This document shows positions 40,096-64,000 of a DNA stretch of 64,000 bases, one piece after another. The notes below the pieces were generated by a model, which saw only the letters and a list, made by a program, of their open reading frames with translations, was not told the DNA's origin and ran no database searches. A program made the translations under genes and the position numbers. The DNA comes from Escallonia rubra (lineage: Eukaryota > Streptophyta > Magnoliopsida > Escalloniales > Escalloniaceae). Numbering within the stretch: position 1 is the first letter of the stretch; each line of letters begins with the position of its first letter. The stretch spans positions 53,501 through 117,500 of the forward strand of contig JAVXUO010002945.1 of assembly GCA_033065855.1 (NCBI GenBank), in the 5' to 3' direction.

Positions 40096-40789
40096 TATTT
40101 ACACTAAGCGAATTTTGGGAAAAATATGCCCGTTCTCTCGCTACTGCAGTAAAGAATTGCCTCACAAGGGATCCGGCAGCAACCATGGCATGTTTTTCAA
40201 CAAGTACTCCGTTCAGCAGTGTTGCACCCGTGCCGAAAAATGCCTCATCCTCGACGGTAAGACAGCACTATGACCTATCCAGTTCAACCCGAATTAATGT
40301 TCAAAGTTCATGATGATGATGATGAAACCCATTAAAAACTCTGATTGATTGCTTTCTTGCTCACCCACAGTATTGGATTTGGCTACATGAACCAGAAAAT
40401 TATGGCAAGAAGATGGGTAACAGTGGGTGTGATTGTGGCCGGCGCAGAAAGGTTGGGGCAGTGGGTTGCGAGGGCGTGCGATAGAGAAACGGGGAGGGGA
40501 AGAAAGTTTTTGGGGCCGGTGCTGGAAGGTGCAACGGTGATTGGAGACGGTAGCCGGCGCAAGAAGGTTGGGCGGTGGGTTGCTTGTACTGTTGCGGCAG
40601 GATGATGGGTGACGGTGGGTGTGAAGGTGGCCGGAGTGAGAAGGTTGGGGCGGTGACTGGGGAAGTTGGGCATCACTGGAAGGTTGGGCAGTGGTTGCTA
40701 AGGTCTGCAACAGAGAAACAAGGAAGAGAAAAGGGGAGAGAGAGAGAGAGAAAAAAAAAGAAAGAGAATATATATATAAATATATAGGG
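40096..40789. other. Unassigned spacer with GC repeat
   Basis: 40096-40313 has an open frame with Ser-rich residues and no known motif. 40395-40690 is a GTGGCCGGnG / AAGGTTGGGGCAGTG repeat with ~190-bp spacing. (GA)n and (TA)n runs lie at 40738-40786. No gene recognised. Confidence 0.4.
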
Positions 40790-40827
40790 GGCCGATCAGG
40801 ATCGACCGGGGGATAATATCCACCCAA

Positions 40828-41182
40828 CCGCAACACTTTCTTGCGGTTGGGTACCATTGGCTTTTTGTTTTCTTTTCTTCCAACTTTTTTTGGCCCCCAC
40901 CCCCCTCACCCCCCAACCGTCCTTTACACCAAACCGCAACACTTTGTTGCGGTTCCGCCCTTCCCCTACCTGCCATGTGGCATGCGGGCGGTCACCCTAG
41001 TCCCCCCTTCCCTGCCTGCCACGTGGCAGGCGGTCACCCCTTCCCCTGTCTGCCACGTGGCATGCGGGCGGTCCCCCTAGTCCCCCCTTCCCTGCCTGCC
41101 ACGTGGCAGGCGGTCCCCCCAGTCCCCCTTCCCCTGCCTGCCACGTGGCCCCCCCTGCCCAAACCGCAACAAGGTGTTGCAG
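40828..41182. repeat. Hairpin motifs ACCGCAACAnnnTGTTGCGGT, left
   Basis: Near-perfect palindromes at about 40830-40850 (AACCGCAAC...TTGCGGTT), 40931-40954 and 41161-41180, with a half site near 41262. Further copies lie at 43088-43115 and 43256-43282 inside the arm. Mirror copies are in the right arm. They may be transposase-binding or foldback sites; that role is inference. Confidence 0.65.
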
Positions 41183-41257
41183 TCCCCCCCCCCACAATCC
41201 GCGACCCAATTTTGTGGCCCCCCCTGCCACGTGCCCCTTTCCCCCCTGCCACGTGCC
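41017..41257 (+). promoter_or_regulatory. CACGTG (G-box) cluster, left promoter
   Basis: Six CACGTG cores at 41020, 41054, 41100, 41142, 41228 and 41250. The first three sit in TGCCACGTGGCA palindromes, or nearly so. The cluster lies 80-310 bp upstream of the TATA box. G-boxes are bound by plant bZIP and bHLH factors, so light or stress control is possible but untested. Confidence 0.6.
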
Positions 41258-41332
41258 CGTTGTTGCGGTTCCCCCCGTCCTTTTTCCGACCTTTCTCTGT
41301 TTTCTTTCATCTCTCTCCCTCACTTTTCCCTC

Positions 41333-41340
41333 TTTATAAG
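41333..41340 (+). promoter_or_regulatory. TATA box of the left arm promoter
   Basis: TTTATAAG after a C/T-rich stretch. Downstream lies an exon-like segment ending at a donor GTAAGT (41502-41507). It has an exact mirror at 60203-60210. It would drive the plus-strand PMD-C48 gene. Confidence 0.55.
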
Positions 41341-42971
41341 CCCTTCTCCCCGAACCCTTTCTTCCACTCCCCATCATCTTTACCAACACAGACTTCATAC
41401 TCCATATCTCACTTACATAATCTCCACAACAATACAAACAAAATTTTTTTACGTTAGAAGATCGGAGGATTTTTCTTGAGCAATATATCAAGTTAAAACA
41501 AGTAAGTATTTTGAATTTTCTTATAATTCAATGTTAATTTCAAATTGTTCTTACCAATGATTTGTTTAAATTGTGTTTAGCTTAAATTGTTCTTACCATA
41601 GTCTAAAATTCGTGTTTTTTGAGAGTTTGAAATTAGGGATTGAACTAGCGTTTATTAGCGAATATTCATTCGAAGTCCAAAAATAGTCATTGTAGACTCA
41701 AATTGAAGATAACGAAAATACAAATGGAACGAAACAAAAATCAGATCAATCGGAGATCGGATGAGCGGTTTTTTAGGGCGTCAAAATTAGGTTTATACAA
41801 ATCAGGGTATTACATTTATATATTCCAAAATACCCATTTTTTAGGGCATCAAAATTTGGATTTTTCATGAATTTATAAAAAATAGCTAGAGCTAGATTTT
41901 CCCAAAGTACAAACAAGAGACCCTAGTTATTTTTAAAAGATCTATATTAGGGAAAACTTTCAGATTTTTCCCTGGACTGGAAAGGGGTCAACTGATACGG
42001 GGAACCTTGTAACTTCGCAGTGTAATTTAAAATATCAAACTAGCGTGATTTTGTGTGAAACTTTTATGAGAACCCTAGGATGTTGGGAAGTTCCGTTTCC
42101 CCTGAATTTGTGCCATTCCGATGTTGTTAGCTATTTTTTTGGCCGAAAGGGTTTTAAGCGCTCGATCCGGACACCGGTTCGGGATTTTTGGGCGAAAAAT
42201 CCCGAAAAGTACTTTTTAGATCAAGAATGAATTCAGGAAGCTTAAAATAGTATTTCAAAGCACTTTTGAGATTTTTCGATGCCAGGGGGCATTTCGGTAA
42301 TTTGCCACCCCGAGAGGGGTATTTTAGTAATTCTACAATGTTAAGTCTACAAATGACTTTTTTGTCCAGAAACCTAAGTAAAACACTTGAAAGGCTGTTT
42401 TGAAGCTGATTTGGGGTTCGGAGTGGGTGATAATGAACCCCCGAGGGCATTTCGGTAATTTGCCGCTCATCAGGGGTATTTTTGTAATTTTCCTGTCAAA
42501 ATTTTCCGAATGCCCTTTAGTTCGGGAAGGGGTGTAAGACACCCGAAAAGTTATTTTAAAGTTGTTCTGAGATATTTCTAAAGATTGGAAAAGGGTCAAC
42601 TGATACGGGGAACCTTGTAACTTTGTAGTGTAATTTAAAATATCAAACTAGCGCGATTTCGCGTGAAACTTTTATGAGAACCCTAGGATGTTGGGAAGTT
42701 CCGTTTCCCCGGAATTTGCGCCATTCCGATGTCGTTAGCTATTTTTTTGGCCGAACGGGCTTTTAAGCGCTCGATCCGGACACCGGTTCAGAATTTTTGG
42801 GCCAAAAATACTTTTTAGATCAAGAATGAATTCAAGAAGCTTAAAATAGCATTTCAAAGCACTTTTGAGATTTTCCGATGCCAGGGGGTATTTCGGTAAT
42901 TTGACACCCCGAGAGGGGTATTTTGAAAATTCTACAATGTTAAGTCTAGAATGTTAATTCTACAATGTTAA

Positions 42972-43321
42972 GTCACCCAAGGTGTTGCGGTTCCTTTTTT
43001 TTTTTCTTTTTTTCGTGGGCCCCCCACCCCCTGACCTTTTTTCTTCTCTTTCTTTCGTGGCCCCCACCCCCTTCCTCCCCCACCCCCGAACCGCAACAAG
43101 GAGTTGCAGTTCTCTGTCCTTCCTACTTTTTTCTTCGTGGCCCCAACCCGCCGTGCCCCCCCCCCCCCCCCCGGTTCCTTTTTTTTCTTCTTTTGCGTTT
43201 CTTGTTTTCTTTTGCGTGTCCTTTTTTGTTTTCTCTTGAGTGGCCCCCCACCCCCGAACCGCAACAAGGAGTTGCGGTTCTCTGTGGCCTTCCACTTTTT
43301 TCTTCGTGGCCCCACGGGCCA
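42972..43321. repeat. GC-rich hairpin module within the left arm
   Basis: C/T-rich, GTGGCCCC-rich sequence with two full and one half ACCGCAAC hairpins and a C run (about 43156-43173). It replaces ~400 bp of a 600-bp unit. The open frames across it on both strands are low-complexity and not genes. Confidence 0.6.
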
Positions 43322-44773
43322 TTCCAAAGTCGTTAGCTATTTTTTTGACCGAACGGGCTTTTAAATGCTCGATCCGGACACCGGTTCGGGATTTTTGGGC
43401 GAAACTTTTGTAAAATACTTTTTAGATCAATAATGATTTCAGGAAGCTTAAAATAACATTTTAAAGCACTTTTGAGATTTTCTGAAGCCAGGTGGCATTT
43501 TGGTAATTTGCCACCCCCAAAGGGATGTTTTAGTAATTTTTCCGGTAAAGTTTTTCAAAGGACTTTTTAGTCCAGAACTGTAAGTAAGACACCTAAAATG
43601 TTGTTTTGAAGCTGATTGCGGGGCGTAATTGTCGCTAAAGGTGAAAACTTAATTAGACAGTTTTTCACGAATTTATAAAACATAGCTAGAGCTAGATTTT
43701 GCCAAACTGTAAAAAAGATACCCTAGTTATTTGTAAAAGATCTGTATCGGGGGAAAATTTCAGATTTTTCTAAAGACTGGAAAGGGGTTAATTGATACGT
43801 GGAACCTTGTAACTTTACAGTGTAATTTAAAATATCAGGCTAGTGCGATTTCACACGAAACTTTAATGAGAATCCTAGGATGTTGGGAAGTTCCATTTCC
43901 CAGGAATTCGGGCCCTTCCGAAGCCGTTAGCTATTTTTTTCGCCGAACGGGCTTTTAAGCCCTCGATCCGAACACTGGTTCGGGATTTTTGGGCGAAACT
44001 TTTGTAAAATACTTTTTAGATCAAGAATGATTTCAGGAAGCTTAAAATAGCATTTTAAAGCACTTTTGAGATTTTCTGAAGCCAGGGGGCATTTTGGTAA
44101 TTTGCCACCCCGAGAGGGGTGTTTTGGTAATTTTCCCGGTAAAGTTTTTCAAAGGACTTCTTAGTCCAAAAATGTCAGTAAAACACCTGAAATGTTGTTT
44201 TGAAGCTGATTGCGGGGCGTTAGGGTGATATTGAATCCCCGGGGGCATTTCGATAATTTGTCGCTCAACGGGGGTATTTATGTAATTTAACATTGTAAAA
44301 TTTTCTAACTTACTTTTAGTTCGGGAAGGGGTGTAAGATACCCGGAAATTTATTTTTTCCAGTTGTTCTGAGATGTTTGTTGGGGCGATGGCTGTCAGGG
44401 GGTATTTTGCATAAGTTGGGGGTGTTTTGGTAACTTTCCCCCTTAGAATACCCTGAGAAAATATTTGGTATATAATTACGTAATACATTTAAAAAGTGGT
44501 TTTAAAGCGGTTTTCTGGTGTTGGTGGTGTAGCGGCCATCCGGGGGTATATTGGTAAATTGCCACGTTGGCTCTAAATTTTAGGGAAGTAGAGTAATTAA
44601 GCGTTCGGAGTGGTGGGAAGTGATGAATTGTTTTAATACATTGAAATAATGAGATAATGACTGTTGCTAACGCGTTGGTAAGCTAGGTTTAAGATCCAGT
44701 TATATTTTTGGAATGTAAATATTATGGACGTTAAGTTGGTTTACGATTATATTTTGTTCTTAGAGATATGTAA

Positions 44774-46704
44774 TTCAACCCCGGACCTCATGATACATCA
44801 ATCCTATACGATGACGATGACCAGGTCGCGAGGTACGTATTTGACGGTGTCGATAGGGGTGTTTTGGAAACAATTCAAAACACAGGTCACCTCGAAGAGT
44901 GGGGACTGAACGAGGAACAAATACAACTATTACACCGTCAAAATTTGACCATGTTCACCGATTGCGGGATTTGGTCTCGGCACGACGATTGCCTTATATT
45001 CGCTCTAGTTGAACGATGGAGGGGCGAGACGAACTCATTTCACTTCCGGTTTGGTGAAATGACTATTACATTAGAGGACGTCGGATTTATACTTGGAATC
45101 CCATGTCACAGCAAACCCATTACTTCGAGCAAAACGTCTGCATCCATAGCGAAGATGGCTAGGCAGTATTTCCCGGGAAGTCCGAGGGAAGCTCTTACGT
45201 CTAACGACATCAAACTTAAATGGCGGAGAGAGCAGTACGGAGTGCTACCGGATGAATACACTCCTCATGATTTGGTGACGTATACGAAGGCATTCCTATG
45301 TATATTATTGGAGCCATATTACTTCCGACGCATTCAAAAAACACTGTGCATCCGAAGTATATGGTGTTCTTGGAGGATCTTGAGGAGGTATACTCGTATT
45401 CGTGGGGTTCAGCTGTTCTTGCGCACCTATATCGAGCACTGCATAAGGCTACGAGATTGGATGCCAAGTCTATTGCCGCCTGCCTGACTCTATTACAGGT
45501 ACGAGCATTTACATTCTTGTTTTGACATGTCAAAATATTCGTGATTAATTACTAATTCCATATAATGTTTGCATTCACAGGTTTGGTCTTACTAGAGGCT
45601 ACCGACGGGACGTCCATAACCGCGGGAATATTCCAATGAGACGTGGCCTAGGGTGTGGGCCTGGGGGCCTACGACCAACCGGAGGAGACGGGTAGACCCT
45701 CACCACCATCTAAAGTTCTATCAGGGGGAACTAGAGATACTGGATGCATCCCAGGTGACGTGGCAGCCATATGGCAAGGTGATGCATCGGTTGGATGAGT
45801 GGTGTTGGCAACTTTCGGTGTCGTACGTGCTGGCAGGTTTGGTTCGGGTGCCGCTTATTCACTTCAAAGTATGTGAGTTTCAGATGCCCGATCGAGCTAT
45901 GAAATAAGTTGGCTGTCTACAAGGGATACCAAAACCCGCTGTAGACATGCGGCCATACAGGAGTGGTTGCCTGGCAAAATTCGAGGTGTCTGATGCCTTG
46001 AATTTGTTGAGCGACGAGGTTCAACAGTGGAATACCTAGCAAGAAACATATGGTAGCCTTGTATCACTCAAGGACGACGACATCAGTATCGAGGAGTACC
46101 TTCAATGGTTTCTCAAGGTGACGCGCACGAGGGTGAATCGCCCTTCCCAGGTGAGGAAGCCATCGTATGCGCCACGTGAGGTCTATGACCAGTTCTGGGC
46201 ATTGAGCATTGTAAGTTCTCCATCCAGCGAACAGAGCGGTCCACATATACGATAGCCTAAGGGAGGACGGACCTGGATGGCTGCTGGCACAGATGTACAG
46301 CAAGTACATCACTGCAGTGGTTAGTTTTTATTTTTTGGCATTGGCTGATAGTATATTCTTTCTTCTTGTTACATAGGCTTGATGACCTTTTTTATTGTTG
46401 GATGCAGACTACTATCCTATTGCTAGCGTGCCAAGATTATTCGGGGGAAACAATCACCAGGAATTTGACGGTGGAGCCTTGGACGGTCGTGATGATACAT
46501 GACTGACCAAAGCAATATAACAGTCACGATTGCGGGATTTACGTCCTCAAGTACATGGACTACATTGCTCGCTCGGAGGTGCTAAAATATACGTCGTGGA
46601 TGAGGAAAAATGCCTTGACGTTTAGGTATAGGATAGCCTGGGAGCTGAAAAAGAATGAAGCTAGACGCCTTCATTACTATTATCATAACCATTATCCTAA
46701 CTAG
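44774..46704 (+). pseudogene. PMD protein joined to C48 (Ulp1-like) protease, broken
   Basis: Plant mobile domain (PF10536): NPGPHDTSIL (44777) opens it, then DCGIWSRHDDCLIFALVERW, HFRFGEMTITLEDVGFILGI and, after a one-base shift near 45296, YIIGAILLP, SWGSAVLAHLYRALHKAT and a splice donor (45499). Intron 45499-45580 ends TTCACAG. Exon 2 begins VWSY-stop-RLPTGRP (a stop where the family has Glu) and has VTWQPYGKV, LIHFKVCEFQMPDRAMK-stop and GCLQGIPKPAVDMRPY. It ends YDQFWAL (46204). From 46221 the frame is C48: HPANRAVHIYDSL (Asp region), an intron (46320-46407), then PKQYNSHDCGIYVLKYMDYI with catalytic Gln and Cys. The catalytic His segment is missing. PMD proteins act in nuclear silencing and development (MAIN/MAIL1), and C48 enzymes cut SUMO-like modifiers. 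The TAA at 44771 directly after an ATG leaves the true start open. Confidence 0.8.
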
Positions 46705-47570
46705 CGTGGCTAAGGTGCAATGAGCAAAGAGCACTGCACAAAAAAGAAATGTACATAATTTTTCGCAAGTTATGAAATTGGCACTAAAGTGTGTGCGAAT
46801 AGCCCTTCATAGGAAAATCCTGAAAAATATTTTGTCTCGTTTTTTGCCGAAATTCATAGAAATGGGCTAAGTAGCGTGCATGAGGTGCAATGAGCGAAAA
46901 AAAAACTGACAAAAAAAATTACAACATTTTTCGCAAGCTAAGCATTGGGCGTTAAAGTGTGCCCGAATAGGCCCTTCATAGGAAAACTTGAAAAAATAAT
47001 TTGTCTAGTTTTTCGCCGAAATTCATAGAAATGGGCTAAGTAGCGTGCATGAGGTGCAATGAGCGAAAAAAAACTGACAAAATAAATTACAACATTTTTC
47101 GCAAGCTAAGCGGTGCCGCTAAAGTGTGCCCGAATAAGCCCTTCATAGGAAAACCAAAAAAAATATTTGTCTCAAATTTCGCCGAAATTCATAGAAATAG
47201 GCTACTTAGCGTGCCTAAGGTATATTGAGCAAAAAAAAACTGACAAAAAACTATACAAGATTTTTTTTAAGTTATGAATTGGGCGAGAAAGTGTACGCGA
47301 ATAAGCCCTTCATAGGAAAACCAAAAAAATTATTTGTTTATGAATTTCGCCGAAATTCATAAAAATGGGCTACCTAGCGTGCCTACGGTGCAATGAGCAA
47401 AAAAGGAAGTGACAAAAAAAATTACAAGATTTTTCGGAAGTTATGAATTGGGCGCTAAAGTGTGCGCGAATAGACCCTTCATAGGAAAACCAAAAAAATT
47501 ATTTGTCTCGATTTAAGCCGAAATTCATAGAAATGGGCTAATTAGCGTGCCTAAGGTGCAATTTAAAAAA
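46699..47570 (+). repeat. 168-bp tandem array between the convergent genes
   Basis: Five units. GCCGAAATTCATAGAAATGG-type sequence is at 46846, 47015, 47181, 47349 and 47517 (spacings 169, 166, 168, 168). Each unit also has GTGCAATGAGCAAAAAA, CTAAAGTGTGnGCGAATA and CCCTTCATAGGAAAA. It begins directly after the protease stop and ends ~200 bp before the transposase stop, the place of a shared 3' region or terminator. Confidence 0.9.
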
Positions 47571-47787
47571 AAACTGGCAAGAATCCACAAACCAAATCAC
47601 AAATTTAAACATTATAAAAGTTCAATTTAAACAACTGAAACACCCTAACACTCTTCCTCATCATCGTCCTTCTCGACCATACTGCCAGGTTCGATACCTA
47701 GCACTTTATAATGGTTTCTCTTGTCATGATCAGTCATCCTATTTCACAACGCACACTTTCACAATATTTTTTTTACCCGTTGCTTCT

Positions 47788-49947
47788 TCAATCGGATTCT
47801 TCATACGTATTGCACGTTTTCGCCCTTTTGTTTGAGAAAATAATTGGATCAAAAATGTCGTCCTCCTCACCTTGCAGGCTAGTGATGTCAATGACTGGCT
47901 GTGAAGCTCGAGTGAATCTACCGGCTGGAGTCGCCCGAGTAGTCGGATTGTCCCGACTTTCTGGTAATGCCATCCTAAAATGTGCAAGGTTAGCCTTATC
48001 CCGTGCAGCTGCTTCAACTTGATACCTGTACCCATCAAATGTTGACATTGCATCCAATGATAAACCGTGCATGATGTTACAAAGGTGATTATATCGCAGC
48101 GTCTCAGATTGCTCAAAATCAACTGAAACATTGGGCACGTAAGGAATGTGACCGTGGACTCTATTGGCTTCCTTCGTCCACCGATCCAAGATATACTTTG
48201 GAGGGATTTCACGAGCATTCTTGGCGCTAAAAAACCTCAACGCGTGTCGACAGAGTATACCTTTATGCTCAAACAGTTGACACTTGCAATTAACACCCCC
48301 GGTCTCCATACACACTGCTACGGTAAAATGTCTTTTGCTCTTCAGAGCCGACGAAGAGCACGGATTGGCAAAATTCGTCACATTTGTCAAAGCATAAACC
48401 TTGAGATATCTGTTGCATAGCTCATGCAACTTTGTCATGCTATATTGATTCGACTTTAGTAGTTCATCCTGAAACTGTCTAAACATTTTCTTGGTATAGA
48501 CTTGAGCCGCATGAGCCTCCAAAGGTGAAAAAACTACTATTTGTCTTTCTCTGTAAACTGTAGCCGCGTCGGCTTCTCTCTCAAGGAAAAATTGTCTGTC
48601 AAGGGCTTTCTGCATCTCTAGTACGAACTCTGTTATACTTGAAGAAGAGCGTACGTACCCATCAAAGAATGCATTCATACCTTCGCTTCTCGAGGTCGTA
48701 GTCATTCTGGCTGCAAAAAACTTTTTGGTGTAGGCACCGATCCACTGTGTCCTGATCTCATACAACGCTTGCAACCATTCATGACTGTGCAAATAGTAGT
48801 CATCCATTAACTTGGCCCACCTCTCCTCAAACACGTCTACCGTCAACGATTTCTTCACACATGTATTAAAGTCACTCTTAAATGTCGGATGGTTTGCATA
48901 TACATTGTGAAGCCGTTCGGGATATTTGTTGCTTATGTGCCATGTGCACAGGCCATGGTGAGTATCTGGAAGGACCTTAGCGATTGCATTTTTCATTGCC
49001 AGATCTTGGTCGGTGATGATGGTCTTTGGAGGAATATGATACATTGCTTCAAGCCACGTTTCAAATAACCACGTAAATGACTCCTCCGTCTCATCCCTAA
49101 GCAAGGCAAAGCCAAACAAGATTGACTGATAGTGGTGGTTCACCCCAGTGAACGGAGCAAAAGGCATAGAGTACTTATTTGTGCGGTATGTGGTGTCAAA
49201 CGTCACAACATCGCCAAAATTTTGGTAAGCAGCTCTAGAACGGGCATCCGACCAAAATATATTAGTAATGCGGTTCTCGTCATCCAGTTGGAGACTATAG
49301 AAAAAGCTAGAATTCTCACTCTGAAGGCGCTTGAAGATATCAAGTGTAGCTTAAGAATCACTCGTACAGGAAGACTCTCTCTTATGAGCACGAAGTTCAT
49401 TTCGGAGGTCTACTTCGTTGAAGCTCAACTTGTCAACCCCCCCAGCCTGACTTGAGAAAACACCCATCATTCTAGAAGGTGGAATTTTAGCCTCGGCCAT
49501 TGTAAATATCAGTTGTCTGTGTGCCGCGCTTATTTCTCGATGCTGATGAATTTGACCAATCTTACTAGGGGTCATCAACTGATGGTTATGGCTCAACTCC
49601 ACTCCCGTCACAACCCAATGGTTTTCATTTTTTTGGTGTACTGCATACACATGGGCCTTGCAGCTGGTACCCAGAAATGTGTCCCGTTTTCTTTGTCTTG
49701 ATGGCCCTTCGTCACAGATCCGAACAACCGGGGGTACATGCGGTGCTCCTCTATGACACTCAAATAGTCTTCCACAAATTTGATCTGTATTGGCCCATTT
49801 TCTAGTCGTCTTAATTCTAATACCAAAACCTATCGTTTTTTAATATGCTCTATAGTATGCTTCAACTTCGTCCAGTGTTTGATAAACTTGACCCAAGTAA
49901 GGTGGATCAGAATCTTCACAAAACTTATTTCCTCCAGTTGCATCCAT
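47788..49947 (-). pseudogene. FAR1-type Mutator transposase, two nonsense codons
   Basis: One 720-codon frame from ATG at 49947, interrupted only by TAA at codon 36 (49840-49842) and codon 199 (49351-49353). Residues ~25-130 form the FAR1 DNA-binding zinc finger (GFGIRI, CGRLFECHRG, TSCKAHVYAV, GVELSHNHQL). Residues ~251-430 are the MULE transposase core: FDTTYRTNKY (Asp251), IITDQD (Asp313), CTWHI and TSRSEGMN (Glu422), so the DDE triad is complete. A SWIM finger lies at 554-568 (CKCQ...GILCRH, CxC-x9-CxH), followed by IPPKYILDRWTKEA. The acidic tail ends EESD. The protein would bind the arms and cut the element out in the nucleus. The frame is otherwise clean, so the stops look recent. The promoter is in the right arm, with a long leader intron inferred. 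Confidence 0.9.
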
Positions 49948-50044
49948 ACTTATACGGAAATCTAAAAAATAAAATTATATAATTCTCAACAAGTCATAGA
50001 ATTAAATAAAATATGTATAAAAATTATTTTCTCTAGTTGTGTGG

Positions 50045-51795
50045 AAACTTTTGACAGGAAAATTACCAAAATACCCCCGATGAGCGGCAAATTACCGAAA
50101 TGCCTCCGGGGGTTCATTATCACCCACTCTGAACCCCAAATCAGCTTCAAAACAGCCTTTCAGGTGTTTTACTTAGGTTTCTGGACAAAAAAAAAAACTT
50201 AACATTGTAGAATTACCAAAGTACCCCTCACGGGGTGACAAATTACCGAAATGCCCCCTGGCATCAGAAAATCTCAAAAGTGCTTTGAAATGCTATTTTA
50301 AGCTTCCTGAATTCATTCTTCATCTAAAAAGTATTTTTTGGATTTTTCGCCCAAAAATCCCGAACCGCTGTTCGGATTAAGCGCTTAAAAGCCCGTTCGG
50401 CCAAAAAAATAGCTAACGACATCGAAATGGCGCAAATTCCTGGGAAACGGAACTTCCCAACATCCTAAGGTTCTCATAAAAGTTTCACGCGAAATCGCGC
50501 TAGCTTGATATTTTAAATTACACTGCAAAGTTACAAGATTCCCCGTATCAGTTGACCCATTTCCAATCTATGGAAACATCTCAGAACAACTTTAAAATAA
50601 CTTCCGGGTGTCTTACACCCCTTCCCGAACTAAAGGCCATTCAGAAAATTTTGACAGGAAAATTATCGAAATGCCCCCGATGGGCGGCGCCCCCGGGGTT
50701 TCAATATCACCCTAACGCCCCCAACTCAGCTTCAAAACAGCCTTTTTAAGGTGTTTTACTTACATTTCTGGAAAAAAAAGTCGTTGGAAAAATTTAACAT
50801 TGTAGAATTACCAAAATACCCTCTTGGGGTGGCAAATTACCGAAAAATGCCCCCTGGCATCAGAAAATCTCAAAAGTGTTTTGAAATGCTATTTTAAGCT
50901 TCCTGGATTCATTCTTCATCTAAAAAGTATTTTTTGGATTTTTCGCCCAAAAATCCCGAACCGCTGTTCGGATTAAGCGCTTAAAAGCCCGTTCGGCCAA
51001 AAAAATAGCTAACGACATCGAAATGGCGCAAATTCCTGGGAAACGGAACTTCCCAACATCCTAAGGTTCTCATAAAAGTTTCACGCGAAATCGCGCTAGC
51101 TTGATATTTTAAATTACACTGCAAAGTTACAAGATTCCCCGTATCAGTTGACCCATTTCCAATCTATGGAAACATCTCAGAACAACTTTAAAATAACTTC
51201 CGGGTGTCTTACACCCCTTCCCGAACTAAAGGCCATTCAGAAAATTTTGACAGGAAAATTATCGAAATGCCCCCGATGGGCGGCGCCCCCGGGGTTTCAA
51301 TATCACCCTAACGCCCCATAATTAGCTTCAAAACACCCTTTCAGGTGTTTTACTTACATTTCTGGAAAAAAAAAAGTCATTGGAAAAACTTAACATTGTA
51401 GAATTACCAAAATACCCTCTTGGGGTGGCAAATTACCGAAAAATGCCCCCTGGCATCAGAAAATCTCAAAAGTGTTTTGAAATGCTATTTTAAGCTTCCT
51501 GGATTCATTCTTGATCTAAAAAGTATTTTTCGGGATTTTTCGCCCAAAAATCCCGAACCGGTGTCCGGATCGAGAACTTAAAAGCCCGTTCGGCGAAAAA
51601 AATAGCTAACAACTCCGGAATGCTGCAAATTCTGGGGAGATGAAACTTCCCAACATCCTAGGGTTCTCATAAAAGTTTCGCACGAAATCGCGCTTGCTTG
51701 ATATCTTAAATTACACTGCGAAGTTACGAGGTTCCCCGTATCAGTTGGCCACTTTCCAGTCTTTGGAAACCTCTGAAATTTTTCCCTGATATAAA
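50045..51795 (-). repeat. Right inverted arm, inner part
   Basis: About three ~600-bp units in inverse orientation to the left arm, with CCCGTATCAGTTGnCC at about 50543, 51139 and 51736. Two consecutive copies (about 50310-50718 and 50906-51315) are identical by eye over ~395 bp while their flanks differ, so that piece was duplicated or converted recently. The arm breaks at 51795, where the Helitron begins. Confidence 0.85.
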
Positions 51796-52036
51796 TCTCT
51801 CTACTTAAAAAGTCTAATGTGTTTAAACATGTTTCTACACATTTTCATGACCAAAATACCCTTTGATCTACTCCATATTACCAGTTACCCCATGTTCTCA
51901 AACCAGTCAACCCCGTGCCAATCGCTCAGGCCATCACCAAGCGGTGCCATACAACTAAAAAAGAAAAGAACCGCTGCTTCTCTTATGTCAACCTCCATCC
52001 CTCCCTCCTCATACACACACCTGTGTTGCCTCAACA

Positions 52037-52162
52037 ATGGCATGTGAAGACCCATCCGCACATAAGATATACCAGACTGTTAAAGCAGCAAATCTCACAT
52101 CAAATGATTCTTGCTTTCTGGGGTTCGAACTCGAACTTCGTCCTACAAGACTTCACCTGCAG
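52037..52162 (+). pseudogene. Exon-like fragment in Helitron, 42 codons
   Basis: CAACAATGG start context, 42 open codons (MACEDPSAHKIYQTV... ending TRLHLQ), then CTGCAG|GTCAGT, a good splice donor. It looks like the first coding exon of a captured host gene. I do not recognise the protein. The evidence is only codon-phase and splice context, so it could be chance. Confidence 0.3.
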
Positions 52163-55100
52163 GTCAGTTTTTGAATTGATAGAATCGCAAATAATCTATT
52201 CTCCCTTTTGATTCTTCTGCGCATACATTTTGTTCTTCCGTATCATGTTTATCAATGACGCATTCGATCAATCTATCGCACATCCTATTGCTTCATTTGC
52301 GACCACCGCAGCCCCTCAAGCACAAAATGTTGACGTACTTTAAATCCAATGTTTTTAATTGTATCCATAGCCATATTAGTTTTGGTTACCATATGCAGTT
52401 CTCTCCTTTTGTGCCTCCTTCACCCATTTCCTCCCTTAATCTTAATCAAAGAGCTTCATGGTATATTTCCCTTAACCATTGCACGGAAGGTGTTTGAAGA
52501 TATGCAATTGCACAAAACGTTACCTTGCGCCGTCTAAGCACCTCGCACGTGTCTTGACTGGGTTCCAAGTTACCAAACTGTCTTACCCAGTGCTCAGGAC
52601 ATTTGCTAATTAGTTTTCATTCTTAGCATTGACGTAGTAAAAAGAAAATCTAAGAACCATGTGGAAAATTACAAAGGCTTAGGGAAAATGTTGTTTCCCA
52701 TTATGCCTTGGGTGGACAAGAAACAGGGAATTTGCTGATATCTTTTTTTTTTGGTTCGAGGATTTGCGTAGGAAAAAGAGGATTTAAGTACCTTTATTAA
52801 ACTGTCTTACCCAGTGCTTGAGGAATTTGCTAATTAGTCTTGGTTTTGAGGATTCACATATGAAGATGTCAGGTGTTTGGCAAAATGCCATTTTCGTGTG
52901 AATTTCTTAGGCCAAGGACATGCCAATAAACGGGTGATGTTTAGTAGGGAATGGAGAAGATAATAATGGCTTGCCAATAACTGTGTTAAGAGGGGATCCA
53001 GATCGCATTAATATGGTCAAAGGCACAAAACTCTTAGATGCAAATGATATACGAAGGTGGAGATGAACGCTACAAAAGTGGAGATTGCGTTAGTTATGAG
53101 CTCTCACTGTTGGGTTTCGTGACCATCCCATTCTTAGGCATTAAAGGTTATACATGGTTGAATTTGCAACTAGATGTAATTTATGGTAGCAAGTGACTTG
53201 CACCATGACTTTCAGCAGTAAGCATTTTGTACCTTTTCTCCATTAGTCAGCAAATTCTCCAGTTCCATTTACCTTATGTAAATCTAAACTTCATCATATT
53301 CATTACACTTGGCACGTCCATATGCTCTACCTACATACTTGTTATCATTAAAACTTTGGTGTTTCATAATCCAGAAAAGAGAGAGTTAAATTACCATACT
53401 TTTTTGGTTACTCTTATAGTTGGTGATTAATGTCATCATGCTTGGTGGTTATGAGGCACCATGTTCAAAAATGGTTTGCAACTTATAGTATCAGCGATTG
53501 AGTGATAGGTATATAGAGAATGGTTTTGTAAAATGTCTTATTAGCGAATGGTGAGTGGGGCTGAGATCTGGTACCATGGTTAGATACTTGTGGGAGAGAG
53601 GTGGAAGCGTCGGAGGGTACAAAACCATTTTAAAGTATCGTGATATGGGGTAACATCATCCAATACGCTACTTATCATGCTACTCACAGTCATGCCCCGA
53701 ATCTGAAAGCATGTGAATTGGTGTGGCACGTGACTTATAGTGCTCTCTCAAAAGCAATTCCTGCTTTGGATGCTTATATGACATGCTTTTGCCAACCAAC
53801 ATGTTACTCTGGCAAAACTTGAGCTATTGCAAGAACCTTTCTTTAGCCAACATAATACTTTAGCATAACTTGGGTTATTGCAAGAAACTTTCTTTTAATG
53901 GTTCAGTAAGGAAAGCTATTGAATGTAAAGATATTAAACGTATTTTCTCATGGTTTTGTAATCGCAAGAACACTGTCCACTTTTGGTATTTTTGACTCAC
54001 CGTATGTTTACAGATTTTTCAAATACCAACTTCTTCTATTACTACATTTCAAAAACTTTGGTTCCATCATTATGACAGTTACCACGATTTTTTGAAATTT
54101 GTTGCACTATTTGTGAAAAGTTTAACAAGCAATGTGAAAAGATTCAAAAAGGCCAATACTCAGTTATTTTATGACTACCAAACTTGAATCTATAGGGTTT
54201 GGAACATAACTGCAAGAGAGAAAATACTGAAAATTGTCCTAAGTGATGTTTGATATCGATTTTCTAATGTTGTAATTCGATTGACTACTTTGGAGAATCA
54301 TAGCTTACATTAATGACATTGAAGTCCTGTTGTTATTATATGCTGTCAATTCGACATATTTTTTAATACTTTTTGTGACTTGTCATGTGTCTACAGTTGC
54401 AGTAGAAATTTGTGTGCTTGGCTGCTGGCAATTCTCTATCACATATTAAGAATTGCAGGTTTGGACACAGCTGTACAGAGGAACGCAATGGTATGTGGCA
54501 TCGTAGACTTTCTTCTACTGTAGCATCTTTGTTGGAAAATTTAAAAATGCCAAGAATTCTCCTTAAATGATTATATATAGTTGCAAGAGAGCTGAAAAAA
54601 CCATGACCTGGTGTATATTACAAGGCTGGTACATATAATCTTATGATTCCTTTGTTTAGTTTTTAACCTCTTATAATTCTCACTCTGCTTGCATAAAGCA
54701 TCTATTTTCGTAAAAGACCGACAACTGGAAGTTCATATTATTGTTTTCCTTAATGGATTATGTTCCCCTAATTATATCAGTCACAAGGTTACCTCCCTGA
54801 GGCAATGCAGGTTATGAGATAGTAAAATTGATAGGACATAAAAGATAGCTTATAGGTGCATGGAAATAGTCTTTAGTGTAGATTTTATGGAGCACGACTT
54901 TGACTTAGCTTGCTGCAATAAACTTGCCCCCGCTTGCGAGGGGGAGGGAGGAGTGAACAAGACGGATAGCCCTGGCTGCTGGTTTTGGAGACCTTGAAAA
55001 GTAACAACACATCATAAAGTTACCTTTGTCAATTAGAACAAGTTTTAAGAGTTGTTTACTCCTGAATGAATAGTTAGCTCAAAGAGAACTCTCACTTGAC

Positions 55101-56518
55101 ATGTCAGACCACTTAGTTCCCTTTGTCATTGTCAGTCCCAATGGAACTAATTGGGCTAGAATCCTAGATTATGTTTGGATGTTAGCCTACTAATAAGATT
55201 ATGCTTGGATGTTTGCTTACAGTGGCGTGAATCTGGTTACTTGGTATAAAATAGATCCAACTTAGTGTATATGCGAATTGCTTTCTCAATTATTGTCGAT
55301 GATTTGGGGTTTAAGTATAGTCTTGTTTAAGTTTGGTGGGACAAAAAATTACTTTTTTTGATGCGGTTAGTTTGTTACGATTTTATACGAAACTACTTAA
55401 GATTATTTCACCGCAGATTATTTGAACTATTGCAGATTCAACAGCTTATGATTTTCTCCTACATTTGGCAATGAGGAAGTTGTAGACCATCGAAAATCTT
55501 GTGCCTGCTAAGGAAATGGTGCAAGGTAGCTTAGAGGAACTGACAAGAGGCTTTAGAAAATAAAAAAAAGTGTCTAAAGACTAGAGATTTATTAACCATC
55601 GATTGTCATTGATGCTTTGAAGGCAGAAGTCAAACCAAATAACAAAAGAAAAGAAAATGGTTCTATGATTGTTTAGCCTTATTTATCAAAGAAGTGATAT
55701 GTTAGACTCATTACTATAAAAAGAAATAAACCGCTATCAAAATAATCGCTTAACAGCTTGGCCGCTATCAAAATGGTTCTAGGTGTTCATCTTAATCGAC
55801 CAACAGCCCCAATCGGCGATCATCAATGCACGATACTTTAGTTTGAGATTTGGCAATAGCTTGATAGGAGAAAATAACTTTCTTTGTCAACCATATTCGT
55901 CTATCCCGTTTACACAGGACATTCTATGGGGCCAAGCGGTGTATTTAGAAGCTTAGGCATCACAGCCGGAGAGCAATTTTTCTATGTCTCTGGTGGTGTC
56001 CCGACATCTTTGCTGCATCTCTATGTCAAAAGGTGTGGGTAGAAGCCATGGCGTCACCTGTGGACTGATCCTCCTTTCTTTCTATGCTTTTTTTTTTTCT
56101 GCATCTTTGCTGCATCCAAATCCTTATTTTTCATCTCATTCTAGATAATTTATTAGGAAATTGCAGACTAGAAGAATTGAGATACCTTTGCAAACGGTCA
56201 TTTGACTTACGTAAGCCTAAAAAATTGTAATGTCTAAAGCTATCCATTTCATTGATCTCAAATATTTTGTGGTGTTTTTCTGCTTGTAGTATCATTATAG
56301 ATTTGAAAAAAAAGTGATGTCTCTTGGAGGATTATGTGATTTCTATGCAGAGAGTTATACTATAGCTAATGTTTGAATTGAATGCTTTATAAAGAAAATG
56401 GTGTCATTTTGGATTGACAATATTCGTAGTCGTTGTGTGAGTGTGTATGCATGCACACATCATCTGATTTTCTTGCAATTGTTTTACATAATAGCCATTC
56501 TTAGCAATTTTGTAAAAG

Positions 56519-56608
56519 CAAGCACACTGCCCACTTCTGGTTCCGCAACTTGCTTTGAATATCCAAGCACTTGACCAAAGGTATGCCTCCATTTCAGCCA
56601 TCAAGTAG
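56519..56608 (+). pseudogene. Possible last exon in Helitron
   Basis: After AAAAG, a frame with residues LLVPQLALNIQALDQRYAS runs into TAG (56606-56608). It is helix-like and not low-complexity, but I cannot assign it. A 32-bp acceptor/donor-bounded piece lies at 54459-54490. These may come from the same captured gene as 52037-52162. Confidence 0.2.
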
Positions 56609-59551
56609 CTTTAATCTTTTTAGGGGACTTCGAGAATTTTCAGCATTAGCATTACATCTCTCTAGATATGGGTGAGTCTACATGGTTTGGTAAGAAAATT
56701 TAGGCATCTTGAATTACATATTACAAGGGTGATTACAACATCCATTTCTGGGATTGCATTTCAGAAGCTATTCGATCATGCTAAAATAAAATGCCTAACC
56801 TGGGACTAAAAAAATTTATGCGGAGTGGCTATACAAATTAGAAGAAAATGGAGAATAAGGCGAGAAAGAGTGTTTCTTTTTTCTTTTTTCTCCCTTAAGT
56901 AAATAGAAGAACTCCCATCTAAAAAAGCTCTTTATCGAGCCAAAATAAAGCAGGGTTAGTAGCAAATAAAAAAGGGAGTCTTCTTATAAGGACCCTCTTG
57001 TGCTTAGGTGCTTTTATTGCTTTCTGTTTATGGCTTCGGTTATCCTTCCTTGGACCTTCAAGTTTGTTTAACCGCTAAGAAATCACAAACTGATCTTAAC
57101 ATCATGCTTTGCATACCAAAATAGCTAAGGAAACATGTTGCATATCTTGCTGATGAATTGAGAAGTCTTACAGCTCTCCTACCATAGGCATCATAAACTT
57201 GTTGGGGCTTGGCACTTCTGCTCTAAAGTGGGGACCTTGAATGCTCAATATTTCTTTCACACATGTTCTGATTGACGGACTGATGGTTGTTTTACATCTC
57301 TAATATTTCTTTCTATATCATGTTTTGACTTTTATGGCTTCCATCTAAGATTTTGCATGCCGTAATTAGATACTACACCACCTGTTTACATGTATGTCTC
57401 AGAGATTAGCCTTTTTTTTTTTTCCTATTCATGTTTCTTGCTTATACCATGTTACAATTTGTGCGTAGGAGTTCTCTAGCATGAGATATTGGCCGTGGTT
57501 GGACTTGGGCGGAGAAGGGCATACGTAGGGATCTGAGTGGTTTAGTTTGAGCATTAAAAAACACATGATGATTTGTTTGTTTGTATGCCCACAGTGTAGC
57601 CTTTTTGCCTATTCCATTTTCTTGCAACATTTTCCATGTATTGGTTCTCTAGCGTCACATATTGCATATGTTTTTTTAGGGACAACGTCGTGGTTTTTAG
57701 TGAGGCCGGTGAATTCCTTTTTCATTATTACAAAATGCAACCTATGGTTTGAACATGAGATAATTAGTCATTGGTATCTCGCTGAAAACTGAAATTGGGA
57801 CATGAATAGGGAATTCATTTTTCATTACAAAATGCTACCTATCTGTTTGCACACGTAATTATTACTTACAAAACTGCCTCTGTTTTCCATATATAGGGAG
57901 ATTGGGTAACACAAATCTCCCATAGATTTAATTTGTTTAGGCCATCTATAACTTCTAACGACAAACCTCTTCCAAACTTTTTTAGAATCCAAAAATTCTT
58001 CCATAGAGTCATAGTACATGTAATGGCGAACCTTTAAGAAATGCGATTGAAATAACACGTAACGCGCTTTATTTCTTTTCTAATGTTATTCAGTTTTTTG
58101 CTGAATTTAATTTGCTGCATTTTAACGTTTTTCCTTCTTGATCATGGCTATTGTGTAGCCAAAAATAGCAAAAACAATGTGCATGCGACAGCTGTTGACA
58201 GGGTACAACTTTAGAACATGCCCAACATGTTATGTGTGGAATGCAACGGAAAAGTCTTGGACCAAAGCGAAGAGACAATTTTGTTAGACCAAAGAAGAGA
58301 GGCACAAATAGGTTGAGAGAAGCATTCTAACCCGCTTTTCTAATGAAGCAGAACAATGTTCCAAGAAACCCTCTAATTTGTGAGGCTCAGCTATCCAATT
58401 CTTCATGAAGATATTCATGAAATCATGATGGCATTTCATATGGAAGTCTCGAACTCAAATTTTTGGGTGGTTTTCAAGACGAAATCAAATGTTCCGAATA
58501 AGTATAATGTTCAATCAACCCATTAGCAAAAATATTTGCATCATTCGGTTTGTCAAAATTAATCCGACTGAATTACATGCATTCATTAAGGTTTCGAACA
58601 GGGGTAACATAGACTTCTTTTTCCTGTCATATAGTTGTTCATTTTTTTATATCCTTCTTAAATCTAACACAATTATTCGCATGAATACAGGATTGTCAAG
58701 AGCATTGTATGACATCTTTTCGATGTCTTGAAGCAATTTTAAACCTCGTGTATGACATCCAAGCTTGAGATATGAGCACCTCTCAAATATGGAATACAAG
58801 TTTTATGCATTTCATAAAGATCTTGCATCCATGTGTGGGTGCAATGGCTCTACATTCTTATGATATAATTTCTTTTCCATTAATAGTTTTTGTTTTGATA
58901 TATGTAGGACGTTTGCTCTATTTAAATTAATGAGCATCATTGTGTATTCCTACATCTTACTGAAATTAGTTCATAGTTGGTTTCTTATTTTTATGCGCCT
59001 CCTTGGTATAAATGGTGTTGCTCTTACTTCTTATCATGATGGATTGCACTTTGCTGGAAATATTTTTCTCCCATTTTCTATTTGTAACTTTTGATACTTC
59101 TGATTTTGACATATGATTTGACAACAACGCATATATAAGAACCTTTTTCCATTAGATATGCAATCATGTTTGCACATGCTTGTGTTAGAGAATTTGTCAA
59201 CGGTGATACTCATCATTTTATTATTAAATCTCAAATGAAGTTGTGCGAGACTAAGTGCTGACTTTGGTTTGTGTTTTTCAAATTGATAAAAGAAAATGTT
59301 ATATGTTCGATAAGAAATGTTGCTATTTATCAAGGAGAAGTAACGTGATAACAGATTTTTCCTAAAGAGATTTGGATATTGATCTTTGCAGTACAATTGG
59401 CTGGTTTTTCTCATTCACGTGTTCAGTTACTTTTATCCATGATCCTAACCAAGTGTTCAGCTTGTAAACATATAATGTAGTTTAGTAAAATTGAATATAG
59501 ATGACTCTATGCCTTTTTAGGAAATATAGACCACTGCATATATAAACTATC

Positions 59552-59580
59552 TACGTGCATTGCACGTACACCACGACTAG
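59552..59580 (+). terminator. Helitron 3' hairpin and CTAG
   Basis: An 8-bp stem (TACGTGCA / TGCACGTA) with a one-base loop, eight spacer bases, then CTAG and the host T. In Helitrons this signals the end of strand transfer. Confidence 0.85.
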
Positions 59581-60780
59581 TCTTATAAAAAGAACTGGGG
59601 TCTATTTTTTACACTTTGGCAAAATCTAGCTCTAGCTCTTTTTTATAAATTCGTGAAAAATCCAAATTTTGGCGCTCTAAAAAATGGGTATTTTGGAATC
59701 TATAAATGTAATACCCTGATTTGTATAAACCTAATTTTGACGCCCTAAAAAACCGCTCATCCGATCTCCGATTGATCTGATTTTTGTTTCGTTCCATTTG
59801 TATTTTCGTTAGCTTCGATTTGAGTCTACAATGACTATTTTGGGATTTCGAATGAATATTCGCTAATAAACGCTAGTTCAATCCCTAATTTCAAACTCTC
59901 AAAAAACACGAATTTTAGACTATGGTAAGAACAATTTAAGCTAAACACAATTTAAACAAATCTTTGGTAAGAACAATTTGAAATTAACATTGAATTATAA
60001 GAAAATTCAAAATACTTACTTGTTTTAACTTGATATATTGCTCAAGAAAAATTCACCGATCTTCTAGCGGTCTATCCACCGATCTTCTAGCGTAAAAATT
60101 TTTTGTTTGTATTGTTGTGGAGATTATGTAAGTGAGATATGGAGTATGAAGTCTGTGTTGGTAAAGATGATGGGGAGTGGAAGAACGGTTTGGGGAGAAG
60201 GGCTTATAAAGAGGGAAAAGTGAGGGAGAGAGATGAAAGAAAATAGAGAAAGGTTGGAAAAAGGACGGGGGGAACCACAACAAGGGGCACGTGGCAGGGG
60301 GGACCGTAAAATTGCGTCGCGGATTGGGGGGGGAACTGCAACACCTTGTTGCGGTTTGGGCAGGGGGGACCGCAGGGGGGGCCACGTGACAGGCTGGGAA
60401 TGGGGGGACTGAGGGGACCGCCTGCCATGTGGCAGGCAGGGAAGGGGGGACTGGGGGACCGCCCGCATGCCACGTGGCTGGCAGGGAAGGGGGGACCGCA
60501 TGCCACGTGGCAGGTAGGGGAAGGGGGAACCACAACAAAGTGTTGCGGTTTGGGGTAAAGGACGGTTGGGGGTGGGGGCCACAAAAAGTTGGAAGAAAAG
60601 AAAAAAAAAAGCCAATGATATCCAACCGCAACAAAGTGTTGCGGTTGGCGAGGGGGGGTGGGGGGGTGGGTGGGTGTAAAAAAAAGGCAACACTTTGTTG
60701 CGGTTCCCCCTCCTTTTCCCCTGCCTGCCACGTGGGTGTGTGTATATATATATATATATATGTATATGGGGACCGATCAA
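59581..60780 (-). repeat. Right inverted arm, outer part with promoter
   Basis: Continues the arm after the Helitron. It holds the AT-rich segment (59581-60013), the mirrored splice donor (60014-60019), an exon-like zone, the TATA box (60203-60210), CACGTG sites (60288, 60383, 60471, 60504), and ACCGCAAC hairpins (about 60330, 60527, 60623). The last stretch (60687-60736) turns back into left-arm orientation, then (TG)n(TA)n and CCGATCAAGATCG. Long open frames here are proline-rich artefacts. Confidence 0.8.
60203..60210 (-). promoter_or_regulatory. TATA box of the right arm promoter
   Basis: TTTATAAG on the minus strand, mirror of 41333-41340. The same exon-like stretch and donor GTAAGT (60014-60019) follow downstream on the minus strand. 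It would drive the FAR1-type transposase; the Helitron now lies within the inferred leader intron. Confidence 0.55.
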
Positions 60781-61656
60781 GATCGATCGGGGGTGGCAAA
60801 TTACCAAAATTTAACATTGTAGAATTACCAAAATACCCCTCTCGGGGTGGCAAATTACCGAAATGCCCCCTAGCATCGGAAAATCTCAAAAGTGCTTTGA
60901 AATGCTATTTTAAGCTTCCTGAATTCATTCTTGATCTAATAAGTATTTTTCGGGATTTTTGGCCCAAAAATCCTGAACCGGTATCCGGATCGAGCGCTTA
61001 AAAGTTCGTTCGGCCAAAAAAATAGCTAACAACATCGGAATGGCACAAATTCCGGGGAAACAGAACTTCCCAACATCCTAGGGTTCTCATAAAATTTTCG
61101 CGCGAAATTGCGATACTTTGATATTTAAAATGAAACTACAAAGTTAAAAGGTTCCCCGTATCAGTTGACCCCTTTCCAGTCTTTGGAAACATCTCAGAAC
61201 AACTTTAAATAACTTTTCAGGTGTCTTACACCCGTTCCCGAACTAAAGGCTATTCGGAAAATTTTGACAGGAAAATTACCAAAATACCTCTGATGAGCGG
61301 CAAATTACCGAAATGCCCTCAAGGGTTCATTATCACCCACTCCGAAGCCCAAATCAGCTTCAAAACAGCCTTTCAGGTGTTTTACTTAGGTTTCTGGACA
61401 AAAAATTCGTTTGTAGACTTAACATTGTAGAATTACCAAAATACCCCTCTCGGGGTGACAAATTACCGAAATGCCCCTGGCATCGGAAAATCTCAAAAGT
61501 GCTTTGAAATGCTATTTTAAGCTTCCTGAATTCATTCTTGATCTAAAAAGTATTTTAAGCTTCCTGAATTCATTCCAGATGAAGCGCTTAAAAGCCCGTT
61601 CGACCAAAAAAATAGCTAACGACATCGGAATGGCGCTAGTTTGATATTTTAAATTA

Positions 61657-62341
61657 GGGTAAATTACACTAAACCCTCTGAGATTTACACTCAAGTCTCA
61701 CAAATGACCCTAAGGTTTCAATTTCAACAACTAACACCCCAAGTTTGCATTTTCGATCCAATTGGACCCAAAATTGATTTTCCATTACAAAAGTCGTGGA
61801 TGGCCGTCACCCATGAGGGCATTTTTGGTAACCAACAAAAAGAAAGCATTTGGAGGGAAAAATGGTTGTTCTCACCACTCTCTCTTCTGCACACACACAC
61901 ACACACACTGAAACATAGATCCAACCACACACGGTGGTGCCCCCCTCCCCTCTAATCATGCACCCCCCAGCATCTTCCCTAATCACAAAGTGCACATACA
62001 CACACTACACACAGAGGCATACACAGTCACGCACACAACCCATTCACACACAGAGTCACGCGCACATAATCTGGTGGCACGGGGCACCAGCGAAGCTCCG
62101 TGACAACGCCTCCACAACACAAGGTCATCAGAAGACGACCGGAGGAATTGGATGGAAGAAAACGAACTGCCGTGAGTGGGTGTACACGGGTGGACTGTCG
62201 TGAAAGTGGGTTTGGGATGTGGAATAGGGCTGCAATGCAGCCATTAGTGTGAGTGTATAATAAATGAAGAGACGAGAATGGTTTTAGTATGTGCTGTGGG
62301 TGATTGTATGGGTGGCTATGTATGTGTGGGTGCTTGGAAGA

Positions 62342-62376
<35 letters not shown>

Positions 62377-63530: not shown

Positions 63531-64000
63531 TTTAAATTACACTGCGAAGTTACAAGGTTCCCCGTATTAGTTGACCCCCTTCCAGTCCAGGAAAAAATCT
63601 ATAGATCTTTTAAAAATAACTAAGGTCTCTTTTTTGCACTTTAGCAAAATCTAGCTCTAGATATTTTTTATAAATTCGTGAAAAATCCAAATTTTGACGC
63701 CCTAAAAAATGGGTATTTTGGAATCTATAAACGTAATACCCTGATTTGTATAAACCTAATTTTGACGCCCAAAAAACCTCTCATCCAAGCTCCGATTGAT
63801 CTGATTTTTGTTTCGTTCCATTTGTATTTTCGTTATCTTCGATTTGACTCTACAATGACTATTTTTGGACTTCGAATGAATATTCGCTAATAAACGCTAG
63901 TTCAATCCCTAATTTCAAACTCTAAAAAAACACGAATTTTAGACTATGGTAAGAACAATTTAAGCTAAACACAATTTAAACAAATCATTGGTAAGAATAA

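What the first reader, a model, noticed from the sequence alone, without database searches (positions are those of the whole stretch)
40790..60780. MuDR-like giant element pairing a FAR1-type transposase with a PMD-C48 gene
Both genes run inward from near-identical promoters inside the arms and meet at a tandem array, the two-gene layout of maize MuDR. Here the second gene is a plant mobile domain joined to a C48 protease. MULEs with Ulp1-like genes (Arabidopsis KAONASHI type) and PMD genes in transposons are known separately. A convergent FAR1-transposase plus PMD-C48 element with multi-kb repeat-built arms is not one I can place in a described family. PMD proteins act in silencing, so a transposon-borne copy could counter host silencing; that last step is inference.
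Basis: partly seen in the sequence, partly recalled or inferred. Interest (0 to 1): 0.88.

Follow-up and report, generated by a model that had tools for sequence, protein, structure and literature searches.

The report
Two-gene jumping gene with VANC-like protein
A decayed plant jumping gene carries, besides its cutting enzyme, a second gene whose close relatives are predicted to fold like VANC21, the DNA-binding protein with which another plant jumping gene removes silencing marks from itself, which suggests how this one may have escaped its host's control.

Summary
The core observation holds. A FAR1-type MULE transposase gene (minus strand, 49947-47788) and a plant-mobile-domain (PMD) gene ending in C48 protease sequence (plus strand, 44768-~46700) converge on a 168-bp tandem array between inverted arms. 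Each outer arm carries the same TATA box, ATG-free leader and splice donor; each gene has a splice acceptor just before its ATG. Both genes are broken here.

Corrections: a 7,785-bp Helitron (51796-59580) splits the right arm, so 40787-60793 holds about 12 kb of element, not 20. Arm repeats continue past 60,793 to the window end, so the right end is unproven. No 9-bp duplication was found.

The parts
40787..41938 (+). Left outer arm block T: CCGCAAC hairpins and CACGTGGC repeats, then promoter-like region, leader exon and start of intron 1
   Evidence: Inverted match to 60648-59581; alignment; hairpin pattern 11 matches in window, 0 expected
41335..41501 (+). TATA box (41335-41339), ATG-free predicted 5' leader and splice donor (exon ends 41501, GTAAGTATT follows) for the PMD gene
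   Evidence: Same TATA and donor letters in both arms, no ATG in the leader. Prediction only, no transcript
41938..44378 (+). Left inner arm: ~600-bp repeat units U, with a partial T block at about 42951-43318
   Evidence: Self-comparison, unit identities
41502..44763 (+). Predicted intron 1 of the PMD gene (3,262 bp), running through the arm repeats
   Evidence: Donor and acceptor TTTTGTTCTTAG|AGATATG read; prediction
44768..46210 (+). PMD coding region (ATG then stop; frame changes; small predicted intron 45499-45580)
   Evidence: PF10536, frames
46215..46701 (+). C48 (Ulp1-like) remnant with NSHDCG; stretch with the catalytic His not found
   Evidence: PF02902 E 2.7e-6 at 46507-46701; frames
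46697..47583 (.). Tandem array between the two gene ends, 168-bp unit, 5.3 copies
47788..49947 (-). FAR1-type MULE transposase gene (FAR1, MULE, SWIM), two internal stops at 49842-49840 and 49353-49351
49962..60019 (-). Predicted intron 1 of the transposase gene, enlarged by the Helitron
   Evidence: Donor TAAAACAA|GTAAGTATT and acceptor TTTTTTAG|ATTTCC; prediction
50043..51795 (-). Right inner arm, three U units of about 600 bp, inverted to the left arm
51796..59580 (+). Nested Helitron (7,785 bp), inserted between A and T; not part of the element
   Evidence: 5' TC, 3' hairpin and CTAG, uninterrupted site in left arm; no Pfam hit in 10 of its ORFs scanned
59581..60793 (-). Right block T1 with TATA (60208-60204), leader and donor of the transposase gene
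60794..61656 (-).
   Evidence: 84-90% to 50194-51029 and 42112-42943
61657..63530 (.). Nested 1,874-bp MULE-like element, inverted ends of about 180 bp, 9-bp duplication TTTAAATTA
63531..64000 (-). Start of a further T block, cut off by the window end
   Evidence: 94% to 59581-59976 and 92% to 41545-42031
40787..40812 (+). 26-bp motif after (TA)n at the outer edge of the left T block; second copy at 60768-60793 on the same strand
   Evidence: 2 matches, 0 in 100 shuffles

Best explanation
It is a decayed, roughly 12-kb or longer Mutator-like element of the FAR1 transposase lineage that carries a second gene for a VANC-like DNA-binding protein (plant mobile domain) joined to a SUMO-protease-like C48 domain. 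Predicted working of an intact copy: the inverted outer arms each give a promoter, a non-coding leader exon and a splice donor; each transcript splices through the repeat-built arm to an acceptor just before the ATG. One arm makes the transposase, the other the PMD-C48 protein. The PMD protein binds short motifs repeated in the element's own non-coding arms and recruits loss of silencing marks there, as VANC21 does in VANDAL21, so that both promoters stay active; C48 may remove SUMO from silencing proteins at the bound site. Shown: the anatomy, the broken state, the Helitron, the domain identities, the fold match of PMD relatives to VANC21. Inferred: pairing on outside contigs, transcripts, splicing, DNA binding, anti-silencing, desumoylation.
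Against: A shared fold does not show shared function, and host PMD proteins MAIN and MAIL1 promote silencing (PMC5418596, PMC7156037, passages). Foldseek TM-scores are modest (0.35 by query, 0.48 by target) and profiles of the family do not reach VANC21 by sequence. The window's own PMD was not modelled, only relatives (50% identity over 327 columns to P0121). Weak DUF1985 hits are no commoner in this clade (11 of 19) than outside it (10 of 24). No motif is shared by the arms and the 168-bp array above shuffles, and known VANC motifs are absent from the element. Only 1 of 19 clade members shows C48, and the nearest kin P0121 has none; many rows are ORF fragments. Co-location rests on equal contig lengths; contigs and gene order were not seen.
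Confidence: 0.6

Rival explanations
1. A real two-gene MULE in which PMD-C48 serves transposition itself (a MURB-like helper, for example in integration or in processing SUMO on transposase) and not silencing.
For: Two convergent genes each started from an inverted arm is the MuDR plan (recalled; MuDR anatomy was not tested here). A protease domain suggests an enzymatic role.
Against: The PMD relatives' fold matches a DNA-binding anti-silencing factor and nothing else clearly.
Confidence: 0.17
2. A passenger: the MULE captured a host PMD-C48 gene by transduplication, with no selected role.
For: MULEs often capture genes (PMC13317346, PMC2528002, passages); genic PMDs fused to a protease are mentioned (PMC7156037, passages); the copy here is dead.
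Against: Relatives of both genes are inferred together on two further contigs, in ORFs of 475-775 residues without stops, which suggests long joint upkeep.
Confidence: 0.13
3. Chance nesting: a PMD-C48 gene or element and a separate FAR1-MULE lie together only in this window.
For: The locus is full of nested insertions (Helitron, small MULE, duplicated arms). Other copies in the own genome could not be searched.
Against: Same promoter, leader and donor block feeds both genes; the two contig ties; no insertion edge was seen between the two genes.
Confidence: 0.1

Closest known systems
VANDAL elements with VANC, and KAONASHI/KIU MULEs (Arabidopsis and other eudicots)
   Same: MULE with a transposase plus a second protein; VANC21 fold matches PMD relatives here; KIU adds Ulp1; in KI-MULEs the ULP domain lies in reverse orientation to mudrA (PMC2528002; PMC13317346; passages)
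   Different: Those are described as non-TIR MULEs, in part with three coding genes, and VANCs carry DUF1985; here long inverted arms, a FAR1-type transposase and a PMD that Pfam scores far above DUF1985
MULEs with PMD-C fused to transposase (grasses, Amborella)
   Same: PMD carried by a MULE; anti-silencing role already suggested (PMC5418596, passages)
   Different: Here PMD is a separate convergent gene joined to C48. P0217 of Dendrobium shows the fused kind with a MuDR-type DNA-binding domain
MuDR (maize)
   Same: Two convergent genes, each started from an inverted terminal repeat (recalled)
   Different: Second gene unrelated by content; arms of kilobases instead of about 200 bp; FAR1-type transposase
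Jittery (maize) and FAR1/FHY3 kin
   Same: FAR1, MULE and SWIM domains; in Jittery the 5' UTR reaches into the TIR and has an extra intron (PMC9569675, passages)
   Different: Jittery has 200-bp TIRs and no mudrB-like gene (same passages)
ULP1-bearing MULEs and CACTAs (melon, rice, grapevine)
   Same: Protease domain inside a DNA transposon (PMC2528002, passages)
   Different: No PMD is mentioned: 'mobile domain' occurs 0 times in that paper

Membership tests
Mutator-like element (MULE) | MULE transposase domain | tested here: met
   PF10551 E 2.6e-33
Mutator-like element (MULE) | 9-bp target site duplication | tested here: inconclusive
   Only (TA)n matches in the ranges scanned; right end unproven
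Mutator-like element (MULE) | Terminal inverted repeats | tested here: met
   40824-41940 against 60648-59581, 85%; exact ends uncertain
FAR1/Jittery-type transposase | FAR1 DNA-binding, MULE and SWIM domains | tested here: met
   hits named FAR1-RELATED SEQUENCE
MuDR two-gene plan | Two convergent genes, each started in an inverted arm | tested here: met
   By sequence only: TATA, donors, acceptors; no transcript
MuDR proper | mudrB-like second gene | not tested
   No mudrB sequence was compared; the second gene is PMD-C48
VANDAL/VANC or KIU | VANC DNA-binding fold | tested here: met
   Relatives P0123 and P0121; window's own copy not modelled
VANDAL/VANC or KIU | DUF1985 above cut-off | tested here: not met
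   P0127: 17.2 bits against a cut-off of 35.1; best E in the clade 2e-4
VANDAL/VANC or KIU | No terminal inverted repeats | tested here: not met
   Long inverted arms. So it is not filed as a VANDAL
VANDAL/VANC or KIU | Ulp1 domain in the second gene (KIU) | tested here: met
   Remnant in window; full domain in celery P0127
VANDAL/VANC or KIU | Sequence-specific hypomethylation | not testable with these tools
   Needs plants
Helitron (51796-59580) | 5' TC, 3' hairpin plus CTRR, insertion between A and T | tested here: met
   no helicase found in 10 ORFs scanned, so probably non-autonomous

The most novel reading that the evidence does not exclude
Plant mobile domain proteins, including the host silencing factors MAIN and MAIL1, are one superfamily with the VANC anti-silencing proteins, built on one DNA-binding fold; FAR1-type MULEs with long inverted arms run their own VANC/KIU-like system, PMD-C48 against self-repeated arm motifs, independent of the VANDAL lineage. 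Hosts and transposons would then use the same fold on opposite sides of silencing.
Probability: 0.42. Interest if true: 0.88.

Novelty: new variant of a known kind. Interest (0 to 1): 0.74.

Why it matters
PMD proteins silence transposons in Arabidopsis through a mechanism that the papers seen here call unresolved. If PMD is the VANC fold, a DNA-binding mode with a solved structure becomes a direct template for MAIN and MAIL1. The element would also be a second MULE lineage with its own anti-silencing gene, so that one can compare how such systems arise and how arm repeats and protein evolve together.

Tried and rejected
Rejected: the 40,790-60,780 extent as one 20-kb element (Helitron inside, arm repeats outside). 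Rejected: near-chance nesting as the favoured reading (contig ties, shared promoter block). Rejected as support: weak DUF1985 hits, since controls outside the clade show them as often (10 of 24 against 11 of 19); DUF7745 hits are commoner in the clade (17 of 19 against 2 of 24) but mostly weak, and their meaning is open.

Led nowhere: a shared motif of arms and array; known VANC motifs; 9-bp duplication of the main element; profile search for PMD in PDB sequences (no VANC21, chance-level hits only); viral contigs (304 pattern matches, none confirmed); Pfam on 10 Helitron ORFs (none). Agreement of branching order of the three pairs in the two gene trees is noted but would arise by chance one time in three. 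A third-block comparison of T copies (shared states 11, 14 and 7) does not say which is the true end.

Not done: the window's own genome (16 unanswered calls, the same request each time). Papers: 10 searches used, 4 answered and 6 timed out; so whether a PMD-VANC likeness or the VANC21 structure paper is in print was not checked. One search (plant mobile domain, transposable element, C48) found 0 papers; one search found 33, 30 listed, of which I opened two (PMC13317346 and PMC2528002) and a third, PMC9569675, also listed there. Babu et al. 2006 is not held.
Full report
What is in the window. The PMD gene lies on + (PF10536), its C48 remnant follows (PF02902), a 168-bp array of 5.3 copies comes next, and the FAR1/MULE/SWIM transposase gene runs against them on -. 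All parts are degraded: two internal stops in the transposase frame; in the PMD gene TAA follows the first ATG, the frame changes, and no His-bearing stretch of C48 is seen between the end of the PMD exon (46210) and the C48 remnant (46215).

Arms. Self-comparison shows two block types. U is a roughly 600-bp unit, repeated at 82-94% identity. T is an outer block of about 1.1 kb with CCGCAAC hairpins (11 pattern matches in the window, 0 expected), CACGTGGC repeats and a promoter-like stretch. Left arm, outside to inside: T, U, U, partial T, U. Right arm, inside to outside: U, U, U, T1, then further U and the start of another T at the window end. Right arm U/T1 is split by an insertion from 51796 to 59580 with 5' TC, a 3' hairpin and CTAG, between host A and T; the left arm shows the unbroken site. 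That is a Helitron. The outer right repeats are split by a small MULE-like element, 61657-63530, whose 9-bp duplication TTTAAATTA is perfect.

Promoters. In both arms the letters CTCTTTATAAGCCCTT, then a nearly identical leader without ATG, then TAAAACAA|GTAAGTATT occur. In front of the PMD ATG stands TTTTGTTCTTAG|AGATATG, in front of the transposase ATG TTTTATTTTTTAG|ATTTCCGTATAAGTATG. So both genes look as if they start in the inverted repeat and splice through the arm. This is prediction; no transcript was seen. Jittery is reported to have a 5' UTR reaching into its TIR and an additional upstream intron (PMC9569675, passages).

Is the pair real? The protein searches returned 120 listed rows of 1,851 for the transposase and 120 of 162 for the stitched PMD-C48 read. 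Among metagenome contigs of 4 kb or more (18 and 7 in those rows) two lengths occur in both: 7,311 bp (P0001, the best transposase hit, 53%; P0123, PMD, 37%) and 11,583 bp (P0024; P0128). Drawn at random from 4-44 kb, two or more ties happen in 4.5e-5 of simulations. The contigs themselves could not be fetched, so order and arms there are unknown. Trees: 44 PMD rows (window plus 43 of the 120 listed, my choice) place the window with three Escallonia proteins (98) within a 20-row clade (100) that holds both paired contigs and celery P0127; MAIN-LIKE and PP7-long-form proteins lie outside. 52 transposase rows (of 120 listed, plus the window) place it in a 27-row clade (100) with both paired contigs and carrot and celery rows. 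Support values are SH-aLRT from quick searches.

PMD-C48 fusion. Celery P0127 (888 aa) holds PMD 66-407 and C48 678-860; the C48 aligns with human SENP1 over 680-869, including the HW, D, Q and DCG regions (His752 and Cys829). Cinnamomum P0190 also has both domains but lies outside the clade on a long branch. Against a general fusion: 1 of 19 clade members shows C48, and the nearest kin, P0121, shows none; most metagenome rows are ORFs that end at the PMD exon.

How it would work. VANC21 binds a 9-base motif in non-coding parts of VANDAL21, and such motifs spread by tandem duplication (PMC5735166, passages); KIU proteins add Ulp1 and act on their own families (PMC13317346, passages). An element with repeat-built arms, promoters inside those arms and a PMD-C48 gene fits the same plan. 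Candidate targets exist, e.g. GGCAAATTACCGAAATGCC with up to 3 mismatches, 15 places in the window, all in U repeats, but these follow from the repeats themselves, no shuffled control was run for them, and the array shares no such motif with the arms. So target choice is open.

What is known. PMD in a rice MULE, and PMD-C fused to MULE transposases in grasses and Amborella, with a suggested anti-silencing role (PMC5418596, passages); PMD joined to protease, kinase or phosphatase in host genes (PMC7156037, passages); Ulp1 in MULEs and CACTAs (PMC2528002, passages). I know of no described element that joins a FAR1-type transposase with a convergent PMD-C48 gene, but the literature check was small. 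Verdict: new variant of a known kind.

Noticed in passing
window 51796-59580: 7,785-bp Helitron nested in the right arm; 10 of its ORFs scanned have no Pfam match, so probably non-autonomous.
   Followed up: yes
window 61657-63530: 1,874-bp non-autonomous MULE-like element, ~180-bp inverted ends starting GGGTAAATTACAC, perfect 9-bp duplication TTTAAATTA.
   Followed up: partly
window 40787-40812 and 60768-60793: 26-bp motif after (TA)n at the outer edge of both T blocks, on the same strand although the arms are inverted; unexplained.
   Followed up: partly
window 42340-42353 and 61410-61423: A 14-base stretch (GTTAAGTCTACAAA) occurs only in the left outer U repeats and in the repeats beyond 60,793, hinting that these are true counterparts and that the right arm ends beyond the window.
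   Followed up: partly
window 6158-6592 and 9175-9509: Two arrays of a similar 85-87-bp GC-rich unit.
   Followed up: no
window 19856-20195, 31082-31421, 32057-32381: Three pairs of ~170-bp tandem units of one kind.
   Followed up: no
P0121 model against the viral library: One unnamed viral-library protein, A0A890CAY5, matches with E 9.3e-6, prob 1.00, but rmsd 29.5; perhaps a PMD-like protein in a record classed as viral.
   Followed up: no
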